From Deroplatys truncata (lineage: Eukaryota > Arthropoda > Insecta > Mantodea > Mantidae): a DNA stretch of 64,000 nucleotides. Each line of letters starts with the position of its first letter. Position 1 is the stretch's first letter. The notes beneath the pieces were generated by a model. That model was not told where the DNA came from and ran no database searches. It saw nothing but the letters and a program-made list of their open reading frames with translations. Below are positions 8,394 through 63,828 of the stretch, piece after piece. The translations under genes and the position numbers were made by a program. The stretch covers positions 49,350,067 through 49,414,066 of the forward strand of contig CM060983.1 in assembly GCA_030765065.1 (NCBI GenBank). Direction: 5' to 3'.

Positions 8394-9117
8394 CTTTTTA
8401 CTTTCTCTACTACGTATAGTAAGTAGGGGAAGTATTGTATTCCACGCAAAAATTCGATACCGAGATTTCACAGGAAATATATGTTTTGAGCTCCCCTGAA
8501 TCCAAAAAAAGCATTTTTGGAAACATGTCCGTGTGCGTGTCTGTGTGTCTGTCTGTCTGTCTGTCTGTTCCTGAGTCTGTGAACAGCATAACTCAGAAAC
8601 GAACAGTCGTATAAACACCAAACTTGATATTTAGGTTCAGTATCTTCCAGAGATGCGACACAAAGGTTTTCAACAAAATCCCCCCGCCCTAGATTACCCT
8701 TTGCATGGAACTTTTAATTTTCTCAAAAATCGCTCTAACGATTTTGATTAAAATATCATATGTTTAAGAAATTTTCATGACAAATGAAATGAATATCTCG
8801 AATTTTCTTGGAATGTCTCCAAAAGTATTCTTCATTCTGAACGACTTTTGCATAACTGGTAAGCCATAAGAGATTTTACTACACAATTTTTTTTTTGTGC
8901 TGGTAATGCAAAGAGAATGGAATACTCCACATAGCAACCAGCTCTTAAAATATTTGACTATCGCTTAAAGCCTACCAATTCCCCTTGATACTACAAGAAC
9001 ATTAGCAATAAGATAACATCTTGATTAACACGAAGCATATGGAGAATAAGCGTTTGTAAAAATAGTTTGTACAAGAGTAGAGAAAATCATGTGAGTGTAA
9101 CATAACGGATTTTTATT
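8394..9117 (-). repeat. R1 repeat, near-complete copy with (CTGT)n
   Basis: Runs from TTTTTACTTTCTCTACTACG with the CGTATAGTAAGTAGGGG palindrome segment to GAGTAGAGAAAATCATGTGA. A short CTGT/GT microsatellite lies at 8528-8575, followed at once by GAACAGCATAACTCAGAAAC. About 100-200 bp of the interior is missing compared with 48920-49845. ACTTTCTCTAC occurs inverted at both ends. Confidence 0.85.
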
Positions 9118-10448: not shown

Positions 10449-11261
10449 GGCTTTTTACTTTCTCTACTACGTATAGTAAGTAGGGGAAGTATTGTATTCC
10501 ACCCAAAAATTCGATACCGAGATTTCACCGGAAATATATGTTTTGAGACCCCCTGAATCCAAAAAAAAGCATTTTTGGAAACATGTCCGTGTATGTCTGT
10601 GAACAGCATAACACCGAAATGAACACTCGGATAAACACCAAACTTGGTATTTAGGTTCAGTATCTTCCAGAGATGCGACACGAAGGTTTTCAAGAAAATC
10701 TCCCCAGCCCAGATTACCCTTTACATGGAACATTTTTTCGAAAATTTTAATTTTTTCAAAAATGGCTAACGATTTTGATTAACATATTATATGTTTAAGA
10801 AATGTTCATGACAAATGAAATGTATATCTGGAATTTTCTGGGAATGTCTCCAAAAGCATTCTTCATTGTGAACGACTTTTGCAGAACTGGTAAACCATAA
10901 GAGATAGACAAAATTTTACTAGGAAGAAAATGTAGATCACGTTAAAATACACAATTTATGTCATATACATTTTTTGTTTTTGAGTGAACCATTTTCGAGA
11001 TATTGCTTGTTATTCCCTTAAATTTTCCAATACTTTCTCTCATTTTTTTATGTCCTGGACATACAAACAGAATGGAATGCGCCACATAGCAAAAAGCTCT
11101 TAAAACATTTGATTGTCACTTAAAGCCTACCATATTCCCCTTGCATCTACAAGAAAACTAGCAATAAGATTAACATGAAGCATATGGAGAATAAGCGTTT
11201 GTAAAAATAGTCTGTACAAGAGTGGAGATAGTCATGTGAGTATAACGCATCGGATTTTTTT
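10449..11261 (-). repeat. R1 repeat, full-length type copy
   Basis: Starts CTTTTTACTTTCTCTACTAC with CGTATAGTAAGTAGGGG and ends GAGTGGAGATAGTCATGTGA then CATCGGATTTTTTT. The microsatellite position is nearly empty: CCGTGTATGTCTGTGAACAGC at about 10585. Because the GT tract is short here, this copy shows the family state without expansion. Confidence 0.88.
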
Positions 11262-19465: not shown

Positions 19466-20270
19466 AAGTCTGATGTGTTACACTCACATGACTTTCTCTA
19501 CTCTTGTACAAACTATTTTTACAAACGCTTATTCTCCATATGCTTCATGTTAATCGAGATGTTAATCTTATTGCTAATTTCCTTGTAGATGCAAGGGGAA
19601 TTGGTAGGCTTTAAGCGATAGTCAAATATTTTAAGAGCTGGTTGCTATGTGGAGCATTCCATTCTCTTTGCGTGTCCAGGACATAAACAAATTAATAACG
19701 AATTCCCATTTGTGAAAAAGTATAAGTATTGGAAAATTCAAACAAATAACAAGAAATATCTCGGAAATGGTTCACTCCACACAAAAAAGTATATGACATA
19801 AATTGTGTGTTTTAATGAGCTCTACACCTTTTGTGTAGAAAAATGTTGTCTATCTCATACGGTTTACCAGTTATGCAAAACCCATTCAGAAAGAAGAGGA
19901 GGTTTGGGGATATTCCAAGAAAATTCAACATATACATTTTATTTGTCATGAAAATATCTTAAGTATATGATACTTTAATCTAAATCGTTAGAGCCATTTT
20001 TGAGAAAATCAAAATTTTCGGATGTTCCATGTAAAGGGTAGTCTGGGGTGGGGAATTATCTTGAAAATCTTCGTGTTGCATCTTTGAAAGATACTGAACC
20101 TTTGGTATTTTCGTTTTTGAGTCATGTTCACAGACACACAGACACGGACCTTTTCCATAAGGTGCTTTTTTGGGATTCAGGAGGCCTCAAAGCATGCGTT
20201 TGCGGTGAAATCTCGGTATCGAATTTTTTGGTGGAATACTTACTATACGTAGTAGGAAAAGTAAAAATGA
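19466..20270 (+). repeat. R1 repeat, full-length forward copy
   Basis: Starts AAAAAGTCTGATGTGTTACA and ends ACTTACTATACGTAGTAGGA then AAAGTAAAAATG. The internal order is the family standard: ATATTTTAAGAGCTGGTTGC, TGTCCAGGACATAAACAAAT, GGTTTACCAGTTATGCAAAA. The microsatellite position holds only CACAGACACACAGACACGG near 20130. It carries the reading frame with LENLRVAS seen in many copies. Confidence 0.88.
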
Positions 20271-28719: not shown

Positions 28720-29146
28720 GGTGATGCGTTACACTCACATAACTTTCTCTACTCTTGTACAAACTATTTTTACAAACGCTTATTCTCCATATGCTTCATG
28801 CTAATCGAGATGTTAATCTTATTGCTAATTTTCTTGTAGATGCAAGGGGAATTGGTAGGTTTTAAGCGATAGTCAAATATTTTAAGAGCTGGTTGCTCTG
28901 TGGAGTATTCCATTCTCTTTGCATTACCAGGACAAAAAAGAATTGAATAACGAAATTGAGAAAAAGTATAAGTGTTAGAAAATTTAAGGGAATAACAAGC
29001 AATATCTCGAAAAATGTTCCATGTAAAGGGTAATCTGGGGTGGGGGGATTTTCTTGAAAACCCTCGTGTCGCATCTCTGGAAGATACTGAACCTAAATAC
29101 CAAGTTTGATGTTTATCCGACTGTTCGTTTCTGAGTTATGCTGTCC

Positions 29147-29181
<35 letters not shown>

Positions 29182-29326
29182 CACACACACGGACATGTTT
29201 CCAAAAATGCTTTTTTTCGGATTCAGGGAGTCTCAAAACATGTATTTCCGCTGAAATCTCGGTATCGAATTTTTGGGTGGAATACAATACTTCCCCTACC
29301 TACTATACGTAGTAGAGAAAATAAAA
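28720..29326 (+). repeat. R1 repeat, internally deleted forward copy
   Basis: Starts GATGCGTTACACTCACATAA and ends ACTATACGTAGTAGAGAAAA. It jumps from AAGCAATATCTCGAAAAATG to TTCCATGTAAAGGGTAATCT near 29010, deleting about 250-300 bp of the unit. The junction lies at an AAAATG present on both sides, suggesting deletion between short direct repeats. It has a (CAGA)n then CA tract at 29147-29189. Confidence 0.85.
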
Positions 29327-34947: not shown

Positions 34948-35782
34948 TTTACTTTCTCTACTACTTATAGTAACTAGGGGAAGTATTGTATTCCACCCAA
35001 AAATTTGATACCGAGATTTCATCGGAAATACATGTTTTGAGACCCCCTAAATCCAAAAATAAAGCATTTTTGAAAACATGTCCGTGTGTGTGTGAACAGC
35101 ATAACTCAGAAAGGAACAGTTGGATAAACACCAAACTTGGTATTTAGGTTCAGTATCCTCCAGAGATGCGACACGAAGGCTTTCAAGAAAATCCCCCCAC
35201 CACAGATTACCCTTTACATGGAACATTTTTCGAAAATTTTAATTTTCTCAAAAATGGTTCTAACGATTTTGATTAAAATATCATATGTTTAAGATGTTTT
35301 CATGACAAATGAAATGTATATCTCGAATTACCTGGGAATGCCTCCAAAAGCATTCTTCATTGTGAACGACTTTTGCTTAACTGGTAAACCATAAGAGATA
35401 GACAAAATTACTACACAAAAAATGTAGATCGCTCTAAAATACACAATTTATGTCATATACATTTTTTTTGTTGAGTGAACCATTTTCGAGATATTGCTTA
35501 GTAGTCCCTTAACTTTTCCAATACTTATACTTTTTCCCAAATGGAAATTCGTTATTCATTTTCTTTTTTGGTCCTGGTAATACAAAGAGAATGGAATACT
35601 CCACATAGAAACCATCTCTTAAAAGATTTGACTATCGCTTAAAACCTACCATATTCCCCTTGCACCTACAAGAAAATTAGCAATAAGATTAACATGAAGC
35701 ATATGGAGAATAAGCGTTTGTAAAAATAGTTTGTACATAAGTAGAGAAAATCATGTGAGTGTAACACATCAAAATTTTTTTT
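34948..35782 (-). repeat. R1 repeat, full-length reverse copy
   Basis: Starts TTTTACTTTCTCTACTACTT with ATAGTAACTAGGGG and ends AAGTAGAGAAAATCATGTGA then GTAACACATC. The palindrome at its edge is changed (CTACTTATAGTAA). The microsatellite is minimal, CCGTGTGTGTGTGAACAGC at 35082. It is followed head-to-tail by an R1b copy. Confidence 0.87.
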
Positions 35783-45909: not shown

Positions 45910-46753
45910 TAATAAAAAGATCTGGTGTGTTGCAATCACATGTCTTTCTTTACCCTTCTACAAACTATTTTTACACACGCTTATTCTCCATATGATTCAT
46001 GTTAATCGAGATGTCAAACTTATTGCTAATTTTCTTGTAGATGCAAGGGGAATTGGTAGGCTTTAAGCGATAGTCAAATATTTTAAGAGCTGATTGCTAT
46101 GTGGCGCATTCCATTCTCTTTGCATGTCCAGGACATAAAAAAAATGAATAACGAATTCCCATTTGAGAAAAAGTATTGCAAAATTTAAGGGAATAACAAA
46201 CAATATCTCGAAAATGGTTCACTCAACAAACAAAACATGTATATAACATAAATTTGTATTTTAACGCGATCTACATTTTTTGTGTAGTAAAATTTTGTCT
46301 ATCTCTTATGGTTTACCAGTTATACAAAAGTCGTCCACAATGAAGAATACTTTTGGAGACATTCCCAGAAAATTCGAGATATACATTTCATTTGTCATGA
46401 AAATATCTTAAACATATGATATTTTAATCAAAATCGTTAGAGGCATTTTTGAGAAAATTAAAATTTTAGAAGAATTTTCCATGTAATGGGTAATCTGGGC
46501 TGGGGGGAATTTTCTTGAAAATGTTCGTGTCGCGTCTTTGAAAGATACTGAATCCAAATACCAAGTTTGGTATTTATACGACTTTTCCTTTTTCAGTTAT
46601 GATGCTCACAGACGCACACTGACCTTTTTCTAAAGTTTTTTTTTTTAATATTATTCAGGTGGCCTCAAAACAATTTCTGGTGAAATTTCGGTATCAAATT
46701 TTTGGGTGGAATGTAATACTTTCCCTACTTACCATATGTAGTAGAAAAAGTAA
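45910..46753 (+). repeat. R1 repeat, full-length forward copy
   Basis: Starts AAAGATCTGGTGTGTTGCAA and ends ACTTACCATATGTAGTAGAA then AAAGTAATAATAAA. It has the whole internal order, including AAACATATGATATTTTAATC and GGTAATCTGGGCTGGGGGGA. The microsatellite site is short: CACAGACGCACACTGACC at 46607. It is followed directly by another R1 start at 46762. Confidence 0.87.
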
Positions 46754-48919: not shown

Positions 48920-49664
48920 TAAAGAATCTGATGTGTTACACTCACATGACTTTCTCTACTCTCTTGTACAAACTATTTTTACAAACGCTTATTCTCCATC
49001 TACTTCATGTTAATCGAGATAAACATTTGCAGACTCTATCTTATTGCTAATTTTCTTGTAGATGTAGGGGGAATATATATTTACAAGGGTAATATAGAAA
49101 TACAGTAGCTTTAAGCACATACATATCTCTTAATAGCTGGTTGCTAGATGCAGCACCATTCCCTTTACCACAGATTAATACTCTTTGCATATCCAAGACA
49201 AAAAAATGAATAATGAATTCCCATTTGAGAAGATAAGCATTGAAAAATTTAAGGGAATAACAAGCAATATCTCGAAAATGGTTCACTCAACAAAAAAATG
49301 TATATGACATAAATTGTGCATTTTAACGCGATCTACATTTTTTGTGTAGTAAACTTTTGTCTATCTCTTATGGTTTACCAGTTATGCAAAAGTCGTTCAC
49401 AATGAAGAATACTTTTGGAGACATTCCCAGAAAATTCAAGATATACATTTCATTTGTCATGAAAATATCTCAAATATATGAACTTTAATCAAAATCGTTA
49501 GAGCCATTTTTGAGAAAATTAAAATTTTGGAAAAATGTTCCATCTAAAGGGTAATCTGGGGAGGGGTGATTTTCTTGAAAATCTTCGTGTCGCATCTCTG
49601 GAAGATACCGAAACTAAATACCAAGTTTGGTGTTTATCCGACTGTTCGTTTCTGAGTTATGCTG

Positions 49665-49701
<37 letters not shown>

Positions 49702-49845
49702 TTACACACACACACAGATGTTTCCAAAAATGTTTTTTTTGGATTCAGGGGTCTCAAAACATATATTTCCGGTGAAATCTCGGTATCGAATTTTTGGGTG
49801 GAATGCAATACTTCCCCTACTTACTATACATGGTAGAGAAAGTAA
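48920..49845 (+). repeat. R1 repeat, reference full-length copy
   Basis: 926 bp from AAAGAATCTGATGTGTTACA to ACTATACATGGTAGAGAAAG then TAAAAAA. The order is: start with ATGACTTTCTCTACTCTCTT; AGATGTAGGGGGAATATATA; CATTCCCTTTACC; GCAATATCTCGAAAATGG; TTTTTTGTGTAGTAAACTTT; GGTTTACCAGTTATGCAAAA; TGGAGACATTCCCAGAAAAT; AAATCTTCGTGTCGCATCTC; CA microsatellite at 49668-49697; GGTGAAATCTCGGTATCGAA; terminal palindrome. ACTTTCTCTAC is inverted at the two ends. The 119-codon ORF at 49535-49894 lies in its 3' half. Confidence 0.9.
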
Positions 49846-49855
49846 AAAATATGAT

Positions 49856-60980: not shown

Positions 60981-61820
60981 AAAATCGGATGTGTTACACT
61001 CATATGACTTTCTCCACTCTTGTACACGCTATTTTTAAAAACGCTTATTCTCCATATGCTTCATGTTAATCAAGATATCCAAATGTTAATCGTAATGCTA
61101 ATTTTCTTGTAGATGCAAGGAGAATTGCTAGGCTTTAACCTATAGTCAAATATTTTAAGAGCTGGTTGCTATGTGGAGCATTCCATTCCCTTTGCATGTC
61201 CAGGACAAAAAAATCAATAATGAATTTGAGAAAAAGTATAAGTATTGAAAAATTTAAAGGAATAACAAGCAATATCTCGAAAACGGCTCACTCAACAACA
61301 AAAATGTATATGATATAAATTGTGTATTTTAATGCGATCTACATTTTTGTATAGTAAAATGTTGTCTATTCCTTATGGTTTACCAGTTATGCAAAAGTCG
61401 TTCACAATGAAGAATACTTTTGGAGACATTTCCAGAAAATTCAAGATATACATTTCATTTCTCATGAAAATATCTTAAACATATGATATTTTAATCAAAA
61501 TCGTTAGAGGTATTTTTGAGAAAATTAAAATTTTCGAAAAATGTTCCATGTAAAGGGTAATCTGGGGTGGGGGGATTTTCTTGAAAACCTTCGTGTCGCA
61601 TCTATGAAAGATACTGAACCTAAATACCAAGTTTGGTGTTTATCCGACTCTTCGTTTCTGAGTTATGCTGTTCACAGATACACACACGCGAAAAAGTTTC
61701 CAAAAATCCTTTTTTGGATTCAGGGGGTCTCAAAACATGTATTTCCGGTGAAATCTCGGAATTTTTGGGTGGAATACAATACTTCCCCTACTTACTATAC
61801 GTAGTAGAGAAAGTAAAAAT
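60981..61820 (+). repeat. R1 repeat, full-length forward copy
   Basis: Starts AAAAATCGGATGTGTTACAC and ends TACTATACGTAGTAGAGAAA then GTAAAAATGG. Internal order is standard. The microsatellite position is CACAGATACACACACGCG at 61674, unexpanded. It begins 34 bp after the MITE. Confidence 0.88.
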
Positions 61821-62002: not shown

Positions 62003-62477
62003 CTTTCTCTACTACGTATAGTAAGTAGGGGAAGTATTGTATTCCACCCAAAAATTCGATACCGTGATTTCACCTTTCAAAGATGCGACACGAAGATTTT
62101 CAAGAAAATCCCCCCACCCCAGATTACCCTTCACATGGAAAATTTTTCGAATAATTTTATTTTCTCCAAAATGGCTCTAACGATTTTGATTAAAATATCA
62201 TATGTTTAAAATATTTTCATGACAAATAAAATGTATATCTTGGATTTTCTGGGAATGTCTCCAAAACTCCTCTTGATTGTGAATGGCTTTTGCGTAACTG
62301 GTAAACTGAAAGAGATAGATAAAATTTTTGTACACAAAAAAATGCATGTCTCGTTAAAACATAATTTATGTCATACATATTTTTTTGTCGAGTGAACCAT
62401 TTCCGAATTATTCCTTGTTATTTGTTTGGATTTCCCAATACTTATAGTTTTTTCAAATGGTAATTCGTTTTTCTTTT
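62003..62477 (-). repeat. R1 repeat, partial reverse copy lacking the microsatellite
   Basis: Starts TTACTTTCTCTACTACGTAT with AGTAAGTAGGGG. It jumps after ATACCGTGATTTCACC directly to TTTCAAAGATGCGACACGAA, removing the segment with the microsatellite. It continues to TTTTTTCAAATGGTAATTCG and is cut at 62477, where the next R1 copy begins in the same orientation. Confidence 0.8.
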
Positions 62478-62479
62478 TT

Positions 62480-63828
62480 TACTTTCTCTACCATGTATAG
62501 TAAGTAGGGGAAGTATTGCATTCCACCCAAAAATTCGATACCGAGATTTCACCGGAAATATATGTTTTGAGACCTCCTGAATCCAAAAAAAGGATTTTTG
62601 TAAACATGTCCGAATGTGTGTGTTTGTGTGTGTGTGTGTGTCTGTGTGTCTGTGTGTCTGTCTGTGTGTCTGTCTGTATGTGTGTGTGTGTCTGTGTGTC
62701 TGTCTGTGTGTCTGTCTGTGTGTGTGTGTGTCTGTGTGTCTGTGTGTCTGTGTGTCTGTCTGTGTGTGTGTCTGTGTGTGTGTGTCTGTGTGTCTGTGTG
62801 TCTGTGTGTCTGTGTGTCTGTCTGTCTGTGTGTGTGTCTGTGTGTCTGTGTGTCTGTGTGTCTGTGTGTCTGTGTGTCTGCGTGTCTGTGTGTCTGTGTG
62901 TCTGTGTGTCTGTCTGTCTGTGTGTCTGTGTGTCTGTGTGTCTGTGTGTCTGTGTGTCTGTGTGTCTGTCTGTGTGTGTGTCTGTCTGTCTGTGTGTCTG
63001 TGTGTCTGTGTGTCTGTGTGTCTGTGTGTCTGTGTGTCTGTGTGTCTGTGTGTCTGTCTGTCTGTGTGTCTGTCTGTCTGTGTGTCTGTGTGTCTGTGTG
63101 TCTGTGTGTGTGTCTGTGTGTGTGTGTGTCTGTGAACAGCATAACTCAGAAACGAACAGTCGGATAAACACCAAACTTGGTATTTAGGTTCAGTATCTTC
63201 CAGAGATGCGACACGAAGGTTTTCAAGAAAATCCCCCACCCCAGACTACCCTTTACATGGAACATTTTTCGAAAATTTTAATTTTCTCAAAAACGGCTCT
63301 AACGATTGTGATTAAAATATTATATGTTTAAGATATTGTCATGACAAATAAAATGTATATCTCGAATTTTCTGCGAATGTCTCCAAAAATATTCTTCATT
63401 GTGAACGACTTTTGCATAACTGGTAAACCATAAGAGATAGACAAAATTTTACTACACAAAAAATGTAGATCGCGTTAAAATACACAACTTATGTCATATA
63501 CGTTTCTTTTGCTGAGTGAACCGTTTTCGAGATATTGCTTGTTATTTCCTTAAATTTTCCAATACTTATACTTTTTCTCAAATTCGTTATTCATTTTTTT
63601 ATGTCCTGAACATGCAAAGAGAATGGAATTCGCCACATAGCAACTAGCGTTAAAATATTTGACTATCGCTTAAAAGCTACCATATTCCCCTTGCATCTAC
63701 AAGAAAATTACCAATAATATTGACATCTCGATATCTCGATTAACATGAAGCATATGGAGAATAGGCGTTTGTAAAATTAGATTGTACAAGAGTAGAGAAA
63801 GTTATGTGAGTGTAACACATCAGATTTT
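62480..63828 (-). repeat. R1 repeat, full-length reverse copy with giant microsatellite
   Basis: Starts TTACTTTCTCTACCATGTAT with AGTAAGTAGGGG and ends AAGAGTAGAGAAAGTTATGT then CACATCAGATTTTT. Outside the microsatellite it is close to the reference copy at 48920-49845. CATGTCCGAATGTGTGTG starts the tract and GTGAACAGCATAACTCAGAA ends it, the same two borders as in every other copy. Confidence 0.9.
62614..63133. repeat. Giant TGTG/TCTG microsatellite, about 520 bp
   Basis: An irregular mix of GT and CTGT, mostly as the eight-base step TGTGTCTG, with a few interruptions such as TGTATG near 62676 and TGCGTG near 62880. It gives several overlapping long but meaningless ORFs on both strands (Cys-Val-Ser repeats on plus, Thr-Asp-Arg-His repeats on minus). 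It lies wholly inside an R1 copy at the family's fixed microsatellite position. Confidence 0.98.

What the first reader, a model, noticed from the sequence alone, without database searches (positions are those of the whole stretch)
48920..49845. R1: an abundant family with subterminal inverted repeats, a 3' palindrome and a fixed microsatellite
More than twenty full or partial copies lie in 64 kb. The unit has ACTTTCTCTAC inverted near both ends, the palindrome TACTATACGTAGTA close to one end only, and a GT/CTGT microsatellite at one position. Drosophila DINE-1/HINE elements (Helentron-associated, non-autonomous) are known to have subterminal inverted repeats, a microsatellite and a terminal stem-loop. 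R1 differs in detail (the hairpin lies inside the inverted repeat, and flanks are A-runs), so it may be a relative or an unrelated design. No transposase or Rep/helicase sequence is present here to decide.
Basis: partly seen in the sequence, partly recalled or inferred. Interest (0 to 1): 0.8.

Follow-up and report, generated by a model that had tools for sequence, protein, structure and literature searches.

The report
Rolling-circle jumping-gene family in mantis
The repeat is a gene-less "hitch-hiker" of a rolling-circle transposon (a Helentron) that is very abundant in what is very probably a dead-leaf mantis genome; driving elements with an intact gene are present in the same genome and some carry the hitch-hiker's own end, so the type is known but the case is unusually large and well resolved.

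Summary
R1 is a non-autonomous Helentron-associated element (HINE, the DINE-1 kind). Read on the minus strand it begins TTTTT-ACTTTCTCTAC with an overlapping palindrome, has a GT/CTGT microsatellite about 130 bp in, and ends GTAGAGAAAGT-CATGTGAGTGTAACACATCAGA before a host T-run, without target duplication. The "missing" Rep/helicase exists elsewhere in the same genome: two 10.4-kb elements read whole have 2,324-aa open frames (protease-like, DUF6570, Rep, PIF1 helicase, endonuclease). Their first 634 bp are 96-97% identical to R1, their last 33 bp 94%. The three copies whose 5' region was read right through are chimeras: an R1 5' part joined at a T-run to the Helentron's own 5' end, and two of them show that the chimera moved as a unit. 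Helentron machinery evidently starts from R1's terminus. Exact ends number 167,430 (5' 22-mer) and 125,509 (3' 30-mer), reversed controls zero. The host is very probably Deroplatys truncata, for which a Helitron burst was already reported. New member of a known kind; the chimeric driver and self-insertion are the interesting part.

The parts
48927..49848 (-). R1 (HINE) copy of the finding, including the element's 5' T tract
   Evidence: Ends defined from 55 complete copies and a 47-copy consensus; this copy listed as 48927-49843 without the Ts
49844..49848 (-). 5' terminal T5 (this copy has six Ts, 49844-49849)
   Evidence: Left T-run exactly 5 in 39 of 55 complete copies; right T-run variable
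49833..49843 (-). 5' subterminal inverted repeat ACTTTCTCTAC
49822..49835 (-). 5' palindrome (consensus TACTACGTATAGTA in element sense), 2 mismatches in this copy
   Evidence: the 34-nt consensus end folds at -4.7 kcal/mol, 4 of 200 shuffles as good
49668..49717 (-). GT/CTGT microsatellite (approximate limits)
   Evidence: read; same place in the consensus and in Helentrons A and B
48949..48959 (-). 3' subterminal inverted repeat GTAGAGAAAGT
48931..48947 (-). 3' terminal stem ATGTG-AGTGTAA-CACAT, just inside the 3' end CAGA
   Evidence: weak energy, 76 of 200 shuffles as good; 23 distinct stems surveyed, each pair kept in 19 to 23 of 23, one double change
8400..9109 (+). other complete R1 copy
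10457..11254 (+). other complete R1 copy
19469..20262 (-). other complete R1 copy
28720..29322 (-). other complete R1 copy (603 bp, shortened inside)
34951..35773 (+). other complete R1 copy
45921..46751 (-). other complete R1 copy
60985..61814 (-). other complete R1 copy
62481..63824 (+). complete R1 copy with expanded microsatellite, inserted in a T-run of another R1

Best explanation
R1 is a HINE: an 861-bp derivative of an endonuclease-encoding rolling-circle transposon (Helentron), moved in trans by a Helentron Rep/helicase. Shown: shared termini, shared 5' 634 bp, Helentrons with intact frames in the same genome, insertion at T-runs without target duplication, and Helentrons that moved as a unit with an R1-like 5' terminus. 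Inferred from the family's known biology: Rep nicks at the 5' T tract, the PIF1 helicase peels off one strand, the 3' subterminal repeat plus short stem mark the stop, and the strand joins a nicked T-run. R1's own T-runs serve as landing sites, which yields nested, tandem and chimeric elements.
For: Helentron copies A (C9:66.06 Mb) and B (C1:248.25 Mb), 98.6% identical over 10.45 kb with no match between their flanks, each have an uninterrupted 2,324-aa frame with, in A, Herpes_teg_N (4.5e-10), DUF6570 (1.9e-16), Helitron_like_N (8.6e-28), PIF1 (1.3e-28) and Exo_endo_phos_2 when the C-terminal piece is scanned alone (1.8e-6, just over the cut-off). The Rep motif YYQRVEFQMRGSPHEH has the Helentron signature of PMC4067079 (S between G and P). 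R1 consensus 1-634 is 96-97% identical to their 5' end and 829-861 is 94% identical to their 3' end. Five further long-frame copies have both termini (5 of 5). Of 19 exact Rep 30-mer sites up to C6:125 Mb, 16 have the Helentron 3' terminus about 4.4 kb downstream (my pairing by eye of the lists). Clear empty sites with host T5, T6, T7 and a C8 Helentron in an R1 T7 run keep T5 on the left and the whole host run on the right. A, B and the C8 copy contain R1-like 1-634 fused to the Helentron's own 5' end; A and B share this between unrelated flanks.
Against: The last 60 bp of R1 and Helentron A agree in only 45 positions of 60 (gapped), below the 80% published for one subfamily. R1's exact 3' end (30-mer) occurs 125,509 times, the Helentron's (34-mer, asking for four Ts as well, so not quite like for like) only 260 times; a lost or unseen sister Helentron may have driven most of the amplification. 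R1 consensus 724-828 had no match in Helentron A. The 3' stem is weak in energy. Tandem neighbours are inconclusive about rolling-circle concatemers: 7 pairs at 83.6-96.0%, 5 of them above the 75th percentile (93.5%) of 136 random pairs but all below their maximum (97.5%), and the pairs were chosen by exact junctions, which favours young copies. A control element of another Helitron lineage was asked for but not obtained. No transposition, circle or single-strand intermediate was observed.
Confidence: 0.95

Rival explanations
1. R1 is a HINE, but was amplified mainly by another, now lost or undetected, Helentron subfamily that carried R1's exact 3' end; the intact Helentrons seen today share R1's 5' end largely through chimera formation.
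For: Exact R1 3' end 125,509 copies versus 260 of the Helentron's (30-mer and 34-mer); last 60 bp 45 of 60; part of R1 is absent from Helentron A; R1 copies have a median of 93.6% identity to their consensus (55 copies), while A and B are 98.6% identical to each other.
Against: The Helentron's own (inner) 5' end is 92% identical to R1 and the 11-bp subterminal repeats are identical, so these belong to one family; the Helentron machinery evidently accepts an R1-like 5' terminus.
Confidence: 0.4
2. R1 is a MITE of a DDE (cut-and-paste) transposon with an A/T-rich target duplication.
For: Short inverted repeats near both ends; A/T-runs on both sides.
Against: Left T-run exactly 5 in 39 of 55 while the right varies, with some copies having fewer than 5 Ts on the right (old copies may have mutated); repeats are subterminal and asymmetric; the termini belong to Rep/helicase elements.
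Confidence: 0.02
3. R1 belongs to canonical Helitrons (Helitron1).
For: Rep/helicase partner; no target duplication.
Against: No 5' TC or 3' CTRR; inverted repeats near both ends; fused endonuclease; Helentron Rep signature.
Confidence: 0.02
4. R1 is mainly a satellite or segmental duplication spread by recombination.
For: A ~3.4-kb tandem array on C1 carries R1 in its units; 6,971 exact head-to-tail R1 junctions genome-wide, control 0.
Against: The 40 best-scored matches lie on 13 of the 16 large contigs; complete copies have precise ends in unlike flanks and three clear empty sites.
Confidence: 0.01

Closest known systems
DINE-1 / INE-1 (Drosophila HINE) and mite HINEs, PMC4067079 (abstract, Background, and parts 1-2 of 3 of Results read)
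   Same: Subterminal inverted repeats at both ends (13 bp in DINE-1, 11 bp here), 5' inverted repeat whose first arm lies in the 5' subterminal repeat, microsatellite, 3' stem, T-rich target, no target duplication, derivative of a Helentron.
   Different: Different sequence; the DINE-1 core was not looked for; the 3' subterminal repeat is 22 bp from the 3' end (38-60 bp in the mite HINEs); host is very probably a mantis.
Autonomous Helentrons with Herpes_teg_N or OTU, Rep, PIF1 and endonuclease domains
   Same: Same domains; 932 relatives at E <= 1e-20 among 7,991 scored candidates, 120 listed, best listed 60% identical to a psyllid (Cacopsylla) protein.
   Different: A block of 21-aa repeats in the N-terminal part (not compared with the relatives); chimeric, R1-like 5' end.
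FoHeli elements of Fusarium (PMC5148889; abstract, passages and the self-insertion section read)
   Same: Composite elements with several 5' termini, explained there by self-insertion; Helitron2-type ends.
   Different: There the duplicated 5' pieces are typically under 200 bp; here ~630 bp, and the outer piece matches the non-autonomous derivative best.
Helitron burst reported in Deroplatys truncata (PMC12908712; abstract, passages and the assembly section read)
   Same: Very probably the same assembly; a recent and an ancient Helitron burst are reported.
   Different: No family, termini, Helentron type or chimera in what I read; supplements were not open to me.

Membership tests
HINE / DINE-1-like (non-autonomous Helentron) | Identical subterminal inverted repeats of 11 bp or more at both ends, near the 5' terminus and further from the 3' terminus | tested here: met
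   directly after T5 at the 5' end; 22 bp from the 3' end CAGA
HINE / DINE-1-like (non-autonomous Helentron) | Palindrome near the 3' end | tested here: inconclusive
   Stem ATGTG...CACAT present and mostly kept (23 distinct versions) but not better than shuffles in energy
HINE / DINE-1-like (non-autonomous Helentron) | 5' inverted repeat overlapping the 5' subterminal repeat (DINE-1 type) | tested here: met
HINE / DINE-1-like (non-autonomous Helentron) | Insertion in T-rich sequence without target duplication | tested here: met
HINE / DINE-1-like (non-autonomous Helentron) | Autonomous Helentron in the same genome with the same subterminal repeats (family rule) | tested here: met
   identical 11-bp subterminal repeats
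[quoted passage not shown]
   45 of 60 with Helentron A: same family, not the same subfamily
Helentron (partner) | Rep with Helentron motif-2 signature, PIF1 helicase, C-terminal endonuclease in one frame | tested here: met
Canonical Helitron | 5' TC, 3' CTRR, insertion between A and T | tested here: not met
MITE of a DDE transposon | Terminal inverted repeats and fixed-length target duplication | tested here: not met
Rolling-circle mechanism | Single-strand or circular intermediate | not testable with these tools
   6,971 head-to-tail junctions are also explained by self-insertion

The most novel reading that the evidence does not exclude
The Helentron lineage with intact genes in this mantis is a chimera that has replaced its own 5' terminus with that of its non-autonomous derivative R1, and R1 copies are also its favoured landing sites; the hitch-hiker thus supplies both start signal and targets to its driver, a self-reinforcing loop that helped R1 reach its enormous number.
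Probability: 0.45. Interest if true: 0.55.

Novelty: new member of a known kind. Interest (0 to 1): 0.4.

Why it matters
It identifies an unnamed, very abundant repeat as a HINE and finds Helentrons of its family in the same genome, in an insect group for which the paper library held no Helentron work (0 papers with both 'helentron' and 'mantis'). Intact partners plus chimeras that moved as units give a natural experiment on which terminal parts the Helentron machinery reads: a 5' end like that of a derivative works. It also gives a concrete family behind part of the Helitron burst reported for the largest of the five mantis genomes of PMC12908712.

Tried and rejected
First guess of the host as a katydid from 16 large contigs (15 + a very long one): rejected by mitochondrial COX1 (best 92% Prohierodula, then Statilia and Sceptuchus at 91%) and by the match of contig C4's length (248,405,437) with the published scaffold N50 of D. 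truncata.

Tandem arrays as proof of rolling-circle concatemers: inconclusive. An empty-site search for a copy with only three Ts on the right (L021) found no spanning empty site, only its own two halves and 22 one-sided matches. The 3' stem as an energetically strong hairpin: not supported. Solved structures gave nothing useful for the endonuclease piece.

Of 35 joined-flank queries, 11 had a match of 80% or more across the joint: 4 queries (3 sites; L019 and L020 are one duplicated insertion) are clear empty sites, 2 (L028) are too diverged to read, 5 are matches to R1 relatives or to their own neighbours. The 55 complete copies are not all independent: three are units of one satellite (L009), L019 and L020 are duplicates, and stretches L033-L042 were chosen for tandem junctions.

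Not obtained: a sixth long-frame Helentron and one element of another Helitron lineage as negative control; both were in the request and were left out of the smaller.

Full report
The observation. ACTTTCTCTAC occurs 37 times in the window at up to one mismatch against 1.42 expected, the palindrome 13 times at up to two mismatches against 0.44. BLASTN with the cited unit returns 49 pieces, 9 copies have both ends, and 21.8% of the window matches the consensus at E <= 1e-5. In the whole genome (4.29 Gb, 818 contigs) the 11-mer occurs 668,437 times against 4,701 for the reversed control, the exact 22-mer of one end 167,430 times (control 0) and the exact 30-mer of the other end 125,509 times (control 0). 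Scaling the window's share by the 11-mer density (18 exact in 64 kb, against 0.156 per kb genome-wide) gives very roughly 12% of the genome; this is one window and a crude rule, and the 11-mer is also shared by related families, so only the exact-end counts are firm.

Anatomy. I took complete copies from the window and from fetched stretches of G000 (55 in all, not all independent) and a consensus from 47 of them (750-960 bp, the two later satellite units of L009 left out), 861 bp. In the sense that matches the coding element (minus strand in the window for the cited copy) the unit is T5-ACTTTCTCTACTACGTATAGTAAGTAGGGG... with a GT/CTGT microsatellite at about 132-168, ending GTAGAGAAAGTCATGTGAGTGTAACACATCAGA. 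The left T-run is exactly five in 39 of 55 copies, the right T-run varies from 0 to 11. The 5' end folds better than all but 4 of 200 shuffles; the 3' stem does not stand out (76 of 200), though its pairs are kept in 19 to 23 of 23 distinct versions. Copies lie at a median of 93.6% identity to the consensus, the 9 window copies at 87.0%.

Target sites. Three clear empty sites were found among fetched stretches: host T5, T6 and T7 runs became T5 left plus T5, T6 and T7 right (the right count includes the T printed after CAGA). Four Helentrons lie in T-runs of R1 copies, whose empty state I take from the consensus (T7 at both places used): C8 has 5 left and 7 right, C4:69.4 and C5:31.1 have 6 and 6, C4:200.7 has 6 and 7, a net gain of five, five, five and six. 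So the element carries about five Ts and goes in at or near the 5' edge of a T-run; copies with fewer than five Ts on the right argue against a 5-bp T duplication, though old copies may have mutated.

The partner. A search with PF14214 found 152 matches (150 of 291 candidates scored). Eighteen of the listed ones have frames of 2,100 aa or more without a stop in the domain. Two of them were read over their whole length: 98.6% identical, flanks without a match, 2,324-aa frames. The frame of A holds Herpes_teg_N, DUF6570, Helitron_like_N and PIF1 and an endonuclease domain that Pfam sees when the C-terminal 225 aa are scanned alone (not listed in the scan of the 1,833-aa piece at E <= 0.01). The Rep motif has the Helentron signature given in PMC4067079. 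Five more copies, chosen by frame length, have the same two kinds of terminus (5 of 5). Of 19 Rep 30-mer sites that fall within the listed range, 16 have the Helentron 3' terminus about 4.4 kb downstream (lists, paired by eye; the whole genome has 51 such Rep sites and 260 such 3' ends). The R1 consensus matches the first 634 bp at 96-97% and the last 33 bp at 94%. R1 is therefore a derivative, as PMC4067079 describes for HINEs, although positions 724-828 have no match in Helentron A and the last 60 bp agree in 45 of 60 only.

Chimeras and self-insertion. In A and B the 5' end is an R1-like piece (96.4% to R1 over 634 bp in A) fused at R1's internal T-run to a second 5' terminus, whose following stretch is 92-93% identical to R1 over 661 positions. 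Because A and B share this structure between unrelated flanks, the chimera itself moved, starting at the R1-like terminus and ending at the Helentron's. The C8 copy has the same structure (93.1% and 91.0% to R1). Three others (L044, L046, L047) begin with a piece closer to the outer than to the inner type by 4 to 5 points; L052 is undecided. That the outer piece came from an R1 copy, rather than from another Helentron, is inferred from its higher identity. Four of the seven Helentrons lie between two parts of an R1 copy (C4:200.7, C4:69.4, C8:76.4, C5:31.1), one (C13:75.8) is next to R1 pieces in a complex arrangement, and two (A, B) are not in R1. By a binomial, 4 or more of 7 has probability 0.005 if R1 is 12% of the genome and 0.045 if it is 21.8%, and the test ignores R1's share of T-runs, so preference is suggestive only. 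Fusarium elements with several 5' termini are explained by self-insertion in PMC5148889.

Mechanism. Shown: shared ends, no target duplication, T-run target, an R1-like 5' terminus in Helentrons that moved. Inferred from the family: Rep nicking, strand peeling by the helicase, stop at the 3' structure, joining at a nicked T-run. Head-to-tail junctions are common (6,971 against 0). Neighbours in 7 tandem pairs are 83.6-96.0% alike; 5 of 7 exceed the 75th percentile of 136 random pairs (93.5%), none exceeds their maximum (97.5%), and exact junctions select young copies, so this does not decide between concatemers and self-insertion.

Host and novelty. COX1 from a mitochondrial insert points to a mantis. 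Contig C4 is 248,405,437 bp, equal to the scaffold N50 of Deroplatys truncata in PMC12908712, which also gives 15+X chromosomes and a 4,290,792,545-bp assembly (G000 has 4,289,915,091). That paper reports a recent and an ancient Helitron burst in this species (passages). No paper in the library holds both 'helentron' and 'mantis', and three hold 'helentron' and 'orthoptera'. Repbase and Dfam were not available. I file R1 as a new member of a known kind.

Noticed in passing
G000:C1:20512-119372 (L009 is part): Tandem array with a period of about 3,408 bp near the start of C1; units carry an R1 copy, so R1 has been captured into a satellite.
   Followed up: partly
window 62442-63245: The microsatellite of one R1 copy has grown to roughly 600 bp of mixed GT/CTGT repeats, open in several frames on both strands.
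   Followed up: no
L031:3130-4620, L029:3-350: N-terminal Herpes_teg_N (viral-type cysteine protease) domain and a block of 21-aa repeats in the Helentron frame; some frame lengths of other copies differ by multiples of 21 aa (2324, 2345, 2387, 2408), others do not.
   Followed up: partly
L024:930-2268: A distant relative with changed subterminal repeats: ACTTTCTCTATCACT at one end and AGTGATAGTGAAATT at the other still pair at 13 of 15 positions, as if the two ends changed together.
   Followed up: no
G000:C12:187497786, C7:191494486, C638:59317, C16 (611, 638 and 672 Mb): Many mitochondrial COX1 inserts, some nearly intact and several apparently repeated in clusters on the longest contig C16.
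   Followed up: no
L019, L020: The same R1 insertion occurs twice in a short tandem array in which other units lack it, giving natural empty sites at 98.5-99.3% identity.
   Followed up: yes
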